A DNA stretch of 64,000 nucleotides from Salinicola peritrichatus (GTDB lineage: Bacteria; Pseudomonadota; Gammaproteobacteria; Pseudomonadales; Halomonadaceae), in NCBI RefSeq assembly GCF_003206715.1, contig NZ_PZJU01000004.1, forward strand, positions 84,067 through 148,066, given 5' to 3'. The notes beneath the pieces were generated by a model. That model did no database searches. It had not been told where the DNA came from and saw nothing but the letters and a program-made list of their open reading frames with translations. Shown one piece after another: positions 52,333 through 60,127 of the stretch; the stretch's first letter is position 1; each line of letters begins with the position of its first letter. The position numbers were made by a program, and so were the translations under genes.

Positions 52333-52484
52333 TAAGGAAACACTGCATAAATGTCTGCGCAGGCGAATCGCTGCGTTGCGCGGTGCTCGAAGACTCGCCT
52401 AACCCCATGTTATGTCTCGCCTTCTGTGCTCCGTGTGCCTTGCGCTTCAGCCTGCTCGCCGATTTATTCAGCATTCCCCTAAAG
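52333..52484. mobile_element. MITE-like imperfect palindrome
   Basis: About 152 bp, 18 nt after the pdxB stop. The two ends are inverted copies (TAAGGAAACACTGCATAAAT against 52464-52484 read backwards, TTAGGGGAATGCTGAATAAAT), and similarity continues inward through a GCAGGC block and a GC-rich block to near the centre, so the whole can fold into one long hairpin. No coding capacity. Its left 29 bp recur at the clpA stop (28029-28057). No obvious target duplication. Confidence 0.7.
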
Positions 52485-52548
52485 CCCTTGTAAACGCTCT
52501 GGAGCGGCCAGCCCGGCCGGGATCGTGAACGGGGCCTGCATGGACGTC

Positions 52549-59584: not shown

Positions 59585-59659
59585 GCGGGAATAGCTCAGT
59601 GGTAGAGCATCGCCTTGCCAAGGCGAGGGTCGCGAGTTCGAATCTCGTTTCCCGCTCCA
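59585..59659 (+). tRNA. glyV: tRNA-Gly (anticodon GCC), copy 1
   Basis: 75 nt with encoded CCA. Acceptor GCGGGAA/TTCCCGC, anticodon loop TTGCCAA. The T-stem is GCGAG/CTCGT; pair 50-64 is C-G here but G-C in copy 2. Followed directly by two tail repeats. Confidence 0.98.
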
Positions 59660-59664
59660 ATTTT

Positions 59665-59740
59665 AGCGGTACAGGATCGGTATCCGAGGGTCGCGAGCTG
59701 GAACGCCAGCCCGGTCGAATCTCGTTTCCCGCTCCAATTT
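59665..59740 (+). repeat. tRNA-Gly tail repeat, unit 1
   Basis: 76-nt unit in tandem with unit 2. After 20 nt of unrelated spacer it repeats the tRNA-Gly 3' part (variable loop, T-arm and acceptor end with CCA, 59685-59736). A 17-nt insert CTGGAACGCCAGCCCGG (59698-59714) replaces the first T of the T-loop. The insert can form a CTGG/CCAG hairpin. It lacks the 5' half, so it is not a tRNA gene. Confidence 0.85.
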
Positions 59741-59812
59741 AGCGGTACAGGATCGGTATCCGAGAGTCGCGAGCTGGAACGCCAGCCCGGTCGAATCTCG
59801 TTTTTCCGCTCC
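59741..59812 (+). repeat. tRNA-Gly tail repeat, unit 2
   Basis: Second tandem unit, nearly identical to unit 1, but the acceptor end is degraded (TTTTTCCGCTCC, no CCA). Same 17-nt insert. Confidence 0.85.
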
Positions 59813-59821
59813 GACAAATGC

Positions 59822-59897
59822 GTCCCATTCGTCTAGTGGTCCAGGACACCGCCCTTTCACGGCGGTAACAGGGGTTCGAACCCCCTATGGGACGCCA
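59822..59897 (+). tRNA. gltT: tRNA-Glu (anticodon TTC), copy 2
   Basis: Identical 76-nt copy with encoded CCA. Confidence 0.98.
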
Positions 59898-59957
59898 CTT
59901 TCATGGCGCTTGCCATGTCGTCGCGGTCCTTCAGTACCCGGGCTTCGACAACGATAA

Positions 59958-60032
59958 GCGGGAATAGCTCAGTGGTAGAGCATCGCCTTGCCAAGGCGAG
60001 GGTCGGGAGTTCGAATCTCCTTTCCCGCTCCA
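59958..60032 (+). tRNA. glyV: tRNA-Gly (anticodon GCC), copy 2
   Basis: 75 nt, same body as copy 1 but with T-stem GGGAG/CTCCT, a compensatory C-G to G-C swap at pair 50-64. Followed by tail repeat unit 3. Confidence 0.98.
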
Positions 60033-60108
60033 TATCGTGAATTTCTGGAACGGTAGGCGAGGGTCGTGAGCTGGAACGCCAGCCCGGTCGATCTCCTTTC
60101 CCGCTCCA
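60033..60108 (+). repeat. tRNA-Gly tail repeat, unit 3
   Basis: 76-nt unit starting exactly after the CCA of tRNA-Gly copy 2 and ending at its own CCA. It carries the same 17-nt insert. Its 3' T-stem reads CTCC, like the adjacent tRNA copy 2 rather than copy 1. The spacer start TATCGTGA recurs directly after it. Confidence 0.85.
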
Positions 60109-60127
60109 TATCGTGACTTCTTTTTGC

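What the first reader, a model, noticed from the sequence alone, without database searches (positions are those of the whole stretch)
59585..60108. tRNA-Gly tails repeated with a hairpin insert at the T-loop
Each tRNA-Gly gene is followed by 76-nt units (two after copy 1, one after copy 2) that repeat the 3' part of the tRNA through CCA. In each, a 17-nt insert CTGGAACGCCAGCCCGG replaces the first base of the T-loop. The T-stem 3' half of each unit agrees with the adjacent tRNA copy (CTCG or CTCC), which suggests local copying or concerted evolution rather than one old duplication. The nearest known parallel is the E. coli tyrT operon, whose repeats carry the last 19 nt of tRNA-Tyr and yield rtT RNA. 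The units could give a small RNA, a decoy for 3'-processing or tRNA-modifying enzymes, or a recombination relic.
Basis: partly seen in the sequence, partly recalled or inferred. Interest (0 to 1): 0.75.

Follow-up and report, generated by a model that had tools for sequence, protein, structure and literature searches.

The report
Mobile hairpin inside tRNA-glycine tail repeats
Behind glycine tRNA genes of salt-loving bacteria lie extra copies of the tRNA's tail whose T-loop carries a 16-letter hairpin, and the same hairpin sits, present or absent with nearly the same edges, inside other dispersed repeats of the genome, so it looks like an extremely small mobile DNA piece whose usual home is tRNA tails.

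Summary
In detail: three tRNA-Gly(GCC) tail units (59660-59736, 59737-59813, 60033-60108), each with CTGGAACGCCAGCCCGG in the T-loop. It is not local. The genus is Salinicola. Units occur in 147 of 221 Halomonadaceae genomes and 20 of about 372 other genomes of the order, two of these behind tRNA-Asp; a class-wide sample hit 2 of 369, both Halomonadaceae. Units follow their own tRNA's T-stem (98 of 129 identical, 1 crossed): local copying. The insert pairs with GGUCG, replacing the T-arm by a hairpin kept through paired changes. It is present or absent at two sites of one MITE (40 copies: 24 both, 4 and 7 one, 5 neither) and at one site of another, whose empty copy lies in this window at 52336-52478. 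Y1 (REP-type) transposases were not found in three cassette-rich relatives. Best reading: rtT-like tRNA-tail repeats as home of a minimal mobile hairpin. Function and mover are unproven; expression was not testable.

The parts
59585..59659 (+). tRNA-Gly(GCC), copy 1 (T-stem GCGAG/CTCGT)
   Evidence: ARAGORN and Rfam RF00005
59660..59736 (+). tail unit 1: 5' arm, then tRNA-Gly 3' part with cassette, ending CTCCA
   Evidence: covariance model R1, 82.3 bits (the unit is among those the model was built from)
59699..59714 (+). 16-nt hairpin cassette TGGAACGCCAGCCCGG (flanked C and TC) in unit 1
59689..59716 (+). predicted hairpin GGUCG-CGA-GCUGG-AACG-CCAGC-C-CGGUC that replaces the T-arm in unit 1
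   Evidence: RNAalifold and pair counts on 42 units
59737..59813 (+). tail unit 2 (degenerate end CTCCG)
   Evidence: R1 65.5 bits
59775..59790 (+). 16-nt hairpin cassette in unit 2
59958..60032 (+). tRNA-Gly(GCC), copy 2 (T-stem GGGAG/CTCCT)
60033..60108 (+). tail unit 3, T-stem letters CTCC like copy 2
   Evidence: R1 79.7 bits
60072..60087 (+). 16-nt hairpin cassette in unit 3
52336..52478 (+). MITE-A copy (inverted ends GGAAACACTGCATAAAT / ATTTATTCAGCATTCCC) with an EMPTY cassette site between 52386 (C) and 52387 (TC)
   Evidence: filled partner in the same genome is L205

Best explanation
The units are tandem copies of the 3' part of tRNA-Gly(GCC) plus its downstream flank, formed and re-copied locally inside tRNA operons. 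In an ancestor a 16-nt hairpin cassette (TGGNNCGCCAGCCCGG) entered the T-loop of such a tail, between a pyrimidine and TC; a related insert standing one or two bases earlier in other families may be a second event. The cassette is a dispersed element: it occupies, or leaves empty, sites of the same kind (C^TC) in MITEs of Salinicola, and occupies the same sites in Modicisalibacter. In the tail it pairs CGRUC with the GGUCG of the variable region, so that the T-arm is replaced by another hairpin; in many units the 5' arm is also predicted to pair with the acceptor strand and the CCA. The most likely role of the unit is therefore a self-folded spacer cut out during tRNA maturation, kept because it is copied with the tRNA and because the hairpin keeps the tail from acting as a tRNA. 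Shown: anatomy, distribution, filled/empty sites, paired changes. Inferred: movement of the cassette, the order of events, and the spacer role.
For: Filled and empty sites at MITE-B site 1 (ATCGGC^TCAAAAT, difference 16 nt) and site 2 (GTAAAC^TCCG; 16 nt in, 2 nt lost), 40 distinct copies, and at MITE-A (empty in the window; filled in L205 of the same genome, 16 in and 1 lost, and in L040 of a genus mate, exactly 16). A MITE-A query with the cassette left out, written before any empty copy was known, brought up the empty copy in the window. C^TC flanks in 65 of 69 contexts outside tails and 88 of 105 in tails, related copies included. Replacement hairpin: 98.6% of 420 cells paired, against 85.2% for the T-stem helix. 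Stem: 202 of 227 units fit a hairpin pattern, and in all 202 the four stem pairs hold, 40 of them with letters other than CTGG/CCAG; the pattern itself fixes two of the four pairs, so only two could have failed. 5' arm: in 71 units mean z -0.81 against shuffled 5' arms, 23 of 71 below -1; acceptor strand paired with the 5' arm 0.60 against 0.46 shuffled. Local copying. In G018, G030 and G055 the exact cassette matches (2, 3, 6) all lie in one tail cluster each, so tails do not need the MITEs.
Against: No expression data. Folding of tRNA plus unit predicts, against the harmless-spacer idea, that the tRNA's 5' acceptor strand pairs with the unit (mean 0.83 over 66 units) rather than with its own partner (0.10); natural units are only slightly better than units without cassette (0.04) or with shuffled 5' arm (0.03). 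Wholly shuffled units also disturb the fold (own partner 0.23 and 0.19), so the model may be of little use here. MITE-A, -B and -C share a core around site 1 (my reading), so these may be one ancestral site, and the MITE-A flank (TCGAATC) resembles the T-loop; independent sites may be as few as three or four. No enzyme that moves the cassette was found. The preference for loop edges that I saw at first did not survive a control. Units were collected by hairpin-like patterns, which favours kept stems. In family f43 the loose pattern has 9-17 matches per genome against 3-5 for the control, mostly inexact and not read.
Confidence: 0.55

Rival explanations
1. Functional small RNA: the unit is processed from the tRNA precursor (cuts after both CCA ends) to a stable hairpin RNA that binds a tRNA-modifying or tRNA-processing enzyme, or acts as a sponge.
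For: Wide conservation (147 of 221 family genomes), stem kept by paired changes, loop ending CG in 201 of 202 pattern-fitting units, restriction to tRNA-Gly and tRNA-Asp although Glu, Cys and Leu lie in the same operons (sample chosen by Gly tails).
Against: Units vary from 0 to 7 per tRNA-Gly gene (66 of 259 genes with none), 10 of 24 genera gave no hit, unit 2 here has a decayed end (CTCCG), the same hairpin sits in MITEs that are not tRNA tails, and no Rfam family other than tRNA reaches its gathering score.
Confidence: 0.25
2. The insert was spread not by an enzyme but by template switching or gene conversion between hairpins during replication, the MITEs doing the long-distance transport.
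For: MITE-A, -B and -C share a core; tRNA-Asp and tRNA-Gly share GGTCGCGAGTTCGA in the Asp-tail genomes, perhaps enough for conversion; tandem expansion of hairpin modules in both tails and MITE-B; no Y1 transposase match in G006, G010, G112.
Against: MITE-B site 2 has flanks (GTAAAC/TCCG) unlike the other sites, yet the same cassette edge; L193 is a further context (AAACGACC/TCCTTTCC), without a known empty copy.
Confidence: 0.3
3. Relic of integration: tRNA tails are old attachment-site halves of integrative elements, and the hairpin is the scar of a MITE that landed in one and was deleted.
For: tRNA 3' ends are usual attachment sites (recalled); [quoted passage not shown] passage in PMC5518125).
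Against: G018, G030 and G055 have tails while their exact cassette matches all lie in the tails; cassette edges alike in tails and MITEs; the operon lies between an msrB-like gene and an ABC-transporter-like gene (my reading of the translations), and among the ORFs listed there I saw none that I would call an integrase; no profile search was made.
Confidence: 0.08

Closest known systems
tyrT tail repeats / rtT RNA of Escherichia coli (details recalled, and as the finding states them)
   Same: Tandem repeats behind a tRNA gene, each holding the 3' end of that tRNA; in several genomes outside Halomonadaceae they are interleaved with terminator-like hairpins (my reading).
   Different: Other tRNA (Gly, Asp), unit about 76 nt, hairpin cassette in the T-loop, no rtT match up to E = 5.
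REP elements and REPINs with RAYT transposases (PMC3733652, PMC3116915; passages read)
   Same: Short dispersed palindromes that fold into a hairpin.
   Different: No GTAG or CGTC tag; smaller (16 nt against 20-40 bp in the abstract of PMC3733652); no Y1 transposase match in three genomes with 30-50 cassette matches; sits in MITEs and tRNA tails.
Small dispersed repeats (SDR) of cyanobacteria and Rickettsia palindromic elements
   Same: Very small dispersed hairpins nested in other sequences (recalled; SDR are named in a passage of PMC3116915, Rickettsia RPE in passages of PMC3733652).
   Different: Different sequence and taxa; I saw nothing of the original SDR paper.
[quoted passage not shown]
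   Same: MITE-A, -B, -C carry the cassette.
   Different: The cassette is an insertion inside them, not the MITE itself.

Membership tests
rtT RNA / tyrT repeat | Match to the family's covariance model in Rfam | tested here: not met
   cmscan of 59640-60125 up to E = 5 lists no rtT
rtT RNA / tyrT repeat | Repeats behind a tRNA gene that hold the tRNA 3' end | tested here: met
rtT RNA / tyrT repeat | Stable RNA released from the repeats | not testable with these tools
   needs RNA data
REP / REPIN | GTAG or CGTC tag at one end (PMC3733652) | tested here: not met
   cassette plus flanks C...TC hold neither tag on either strand (sequences)
REP / REPIN | RAYT (Y1 transposase) in the genome beside repeats | tested here: not met
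   PF01797 gave no match in G006, G010, G112 (50, 30, 46 cassette matches at <= 1 mismatch, control 2, 4, 3); the one match in G000 has no cassette in its 3366-nt locus
Small dispersed mobile hairpin (SDR-like) | Present/absent with the same edges at several sites | tested here: met
   exact at MITE-B site 1, 2 nt lost at site 2
Small dispersed mobile hairpin (SDR-like) | Movement seen in one lineage over time | not testable with these tools
   needs population or evolution-experiment genomes
tRNA gene | Foldable cloverleaf | tested here: not met
   ARAGORN and Rfam call no tRNA in the units

The most novel reading that the evidence does not exclude
A 16-nt hairpin is itself a mobile element, among the smallest known, that enters DNA at C^TC and uses the T-arm of tRNA-tail repeats as a family-wide reservoir from which it has spread into MITEs, moved in trans by an enzyme that is not a known REP transposase.
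Probability: 0.3. Interest if true: 0.8.

Novelty: new variant of a known kind. Interest (0 to 1): 0.6.

Why it matters
It links two things that are usually studied apart, tRNA-tail repeats and short dispersed palindromes, and gives empty and filled sites for the question of how the smallest repeats move. It also warns that tRNA operons of a large bacterial family carry tRNA mimics that could disturb tRNA sequencing and annotation.

Tried and rejected
Decoy for T-arm enzymes: weakened, since the T-arm helix is worse kept than the replacement hairpin. RAYT-driven REP: not supported at this sensitivity (8 of the 14 genomes do have some Y1 match, G000 included). Insertion always at the edge of a hairpin loop: looked good on nine contexts, but 5 of 9 and 6 of 8 YTC positions in MITE-A and MITE-B are such edges in the RNA fold, so dropped. 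Self-sealing of the tail to protect the tRNA: direction right, size small, absolute prediction against it. Whole-unit shuffles of six units gave weak z-scores, -0.4 to -1.6. Paper searches of the held library listed no paper that describes these units or the cassette, as far as titles and abstract starts show; beyond the listings I saw only passages of PMC3733652, PMC5518125, PMC3116915 and PMC7657543. One pattern search was mis-spaced and useless.

Full report
Observation. The window holds a tRNA operon Glu-Gly-[unit][unit]-Glu-Gly-[unit]-Glu. Each unit starts right after the CCA of tRNA-Gly(GCC) or of the previous unit, has about 30 nt of its own sequence, and then repeats the tRNA from the variable region to the 3' end, with CTGGAACGCCAGCCCGG in place of the first T-loop base. 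The second unit ends CTCCG; the third has lost one A of the loop and has GTGAG for GGGAG.

Where it lives. In genus mates the unit follows tRNA-Gly both in the Glu-Gly operon and in the Gly-Cys operon. A covariance model of the unit's 3' part (R1) was used at E <= 1e-7, a level that tRNA-Gly itself does not reach in the printed rows (best 2.6e-6). It hits 147 of 221 Halomonadaceae genomes, 14 of 24 genera, 16 of the 18 genus members included. Of the two misses in the genus, G007 has a tail with another, composite insert (L025), and in G002 I saw no unit at the locus read (L026). In the order, 390 genomes were searched, 18 of them listed as this family; outside it 20 genomes reach that level, in five families (f6 6, f38 7, f43 5, f29 1, f37 1; my count from the table). 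Among named records outside the family I read Thalassolituus (2 records), Saccharospirillum impatiens and an Alcanivorax MAG. In the class sample 2 of 369 genomes hit, both Halomonadaceae. The searches of over 40 genomes used stricter filters, so weak matches are lost.

Variants outside the family. There the units often lie between terminator-like hairpins (CCA-AATT-hairpin-T-run-unit-CCA; my reading). In f43, f29, f37 and some f6 loci the insert is of the form CCGGNGCGCCGGCCGG and stands one or two bases earlier, before a TTCGA or TTGA loop (L128-L131, L138): perhaps a separate event. I take f43 for the Alcanivorax family from the likeness of L123 and L312. In G405 and G423 the CTGG cassette sits in tails of tRNA-Asp; L288 (S. 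impatiens) shows the same tails as G423 and is probably the same genome. In the loci fetched, which were chosen by Gly tails or cassettes, tail copies follow 170 of 261 tRNA-Gly, 3 of 5 tRNA-Asp, 2 of 228 tRNA-Glu (both doubtful: broken Glu copies), 1 of 14 tRNA-Ser (not looked at), and none of 45 Cys, 44 Leu, 15 Ala, 4 Val, 1 Met. With a looser rule 224 of 251 Gly tail copies show the hairpin; of the other 27 some have a variant hairpin and some look like chance.

Local copying. In 129 first units the four T-stem letters equal those of the tRNA in front in 98, match another tRNA type in 1, and are neither in 30. On 227 distinct tRNA-unit pairs five letters agree in 167. Units per tRNA-Gly gene: 0 in 66, 1 in 158, 2 in 24, 3 in 8, 4 in 2, 7 in 1 (259 genes).

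Structure. RNAalifold on 42 units, which I picked from 61 distinct 3' parts, gives GGUCG-NGA-GCYGG-AACG-CCRGY-C-CGRUC: 98.6% of 420 cells paired, 3 pairs with changes on both sides, covariation score 0.195 against 0.145 shuffled and at most 0.070 when slid. The structure was derived from the same alignment, and the rows were collected by a hairpin-like pattern, so both numbers lean its way. The T-stem helix holds 85.2%. Of 227 units 202 fit a stricter hairpin pattern; in all 202 the stem pairs (CTGG/CCAG 162, CCGG/CCGG 36, others 4; two of the four pairs are fixed by the pattern), the loop ends CG in 201, and positions 26 and 30 go together (C with G 128, T with A 66, other 8), a coupling I cannot explain. 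The 5' arms, although different, pair with the acceptor strand more than shuffled arms do (71 units; 12 longer ones left out of 83; related units count separately).

The insert is a dispersed cassette. The own genome has 48 matches within two mismatches, 2 for the reversed control. Reading about 35 of them showed three MITE-like families, and also a few inexact matches in other sequence (L208-L210). MITE-A has ends GGAAACACTGCATAAAT. MITE-B has ends GTACGAAAA; 37-48 matches to it were reported in 11 of 18 genus genomes, 1-24 in the other 7 (at most 40 first-look candidates scored). MITE-C resembles A. In MITE-B the cassette is present or absent at two sites: of 40 distinct copies, all from this genus, 24 have both, 4 only site 1, 7 only site 2, 5 neither (my count on the alignment; copies were partly picked by length, so these are not frequencies). 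Site 1 differs by 16 nt (L177 against L144); site 2 gains 16 and loses 2. Querying the fetched loci with a cassette-less MITE-A then brought up a real empty copy in this very window at 52336-52478. Its site GCGCGGTGC^TCGAAGACTCGCC is filled in L205 of the same genome (one A fewer) and, by exactly 16 nt, in L040 of a genus mate. In one search the hits that span the site were 17 filled and 2 without cassette (window, L065; my count of printed rows), but most loci there had been fetched because of the cassette. Tandem second modules occur in MITE-B and in tails.

Which home is older. With a loose pattern at <= 1 mismatch, matches (reversed control) were G000 45 (1), G006 50 (2), G010 30 (4), G112 46 (3); G018 7 (1), G030 7 (3), G055 8 (0), G071 5 (0), G435 1 (0); f43 genomes 9-17 (3-5), of which 0 or 1 exact each; G405 23 (5), not read (32 genomes). 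In G018, G030 and G055 the exact matches all lie in the tail clusters. So tails exist where the MITE copies do not, and I read tails as the older home; this is inference.

How it may work. I commit to a mobile hairpin lodged in rtT-like tail repeats, which as RNA is a folded spacer removed in tRNA maturation. The mover is unknown: PF01797 (Y1 transposase) has no match in G006, G010 and G112; G000 has one, beside what I read as a TnpB-like frame, without cassette in its locus. Folding of tRNA plus unit contradicts the harmless-spacer idea as far as it goes: the 5' acceptor strand pairs with the unit at 0.83, its own partner at 0.10 (66 usable of 70 units sampled from 129), while the tRNA alone folds properly (0.95 for both own tRNAs). 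Tertiary contacts and folding during transcription are not in that model.

Known things. In the window no Rfam family but tRNA reaches its gathering score, and a permissive scan of 59640-60125 added only sub-threshold matches, none of them rtT. REP elements carry GTAG or CGTC tags (PMC3733652, passages) and RAYTs (PMC3116915, passages); neither is met. The E. coli tyrT parallel is recalled, not read.

Noticed in passing
window 52336-52478: MITE-A copy with inverted ends and an empty cassette site.
   Followed up: yes
window 52480-52530: Shortly behind that MITE: CTCTGGAGCGGCCAGCCCGGCC (printed), a possible degenerate cassette with a five-base loop, or chance.
   Followed up: no
L124, L131 (family f43): A tRNA-Glu copy is broken in its T-arm by a different palindromic repeat; tRNA T-arms may attract several palindromes.
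   Followed up: no
L284, L112, L125, L135, L298: Second kind of tRNA-Gly tail: only about TCCCGCTCCA at the end of another repeat with TCGCTGCGCTC or TCGCTTCGCTC, without the cassette.
   Followed up: partly
L116, L125, L129, L132, L133: Upstream of units outside Halomonadaceae lies an inverted copy of part of the tRNA T-arm (e.g. GTTCAACTCCCGACC A GGGTCGTGAG), so GGTCG has two possible partners (my reading).
   Followed up: no
tail units, alignment A1 columns 26 and 30: C..G or T..A in 194 of 202 units; also T..A in a MITE-B copy (L189), but C..A in another (L149). No pairing between the two in the consensus fold explains it.
   Followed up: partly
L105: A unit standing between two terminator-like hairpins behind the last tRNA-Gly (my reading).
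   Followed up: no
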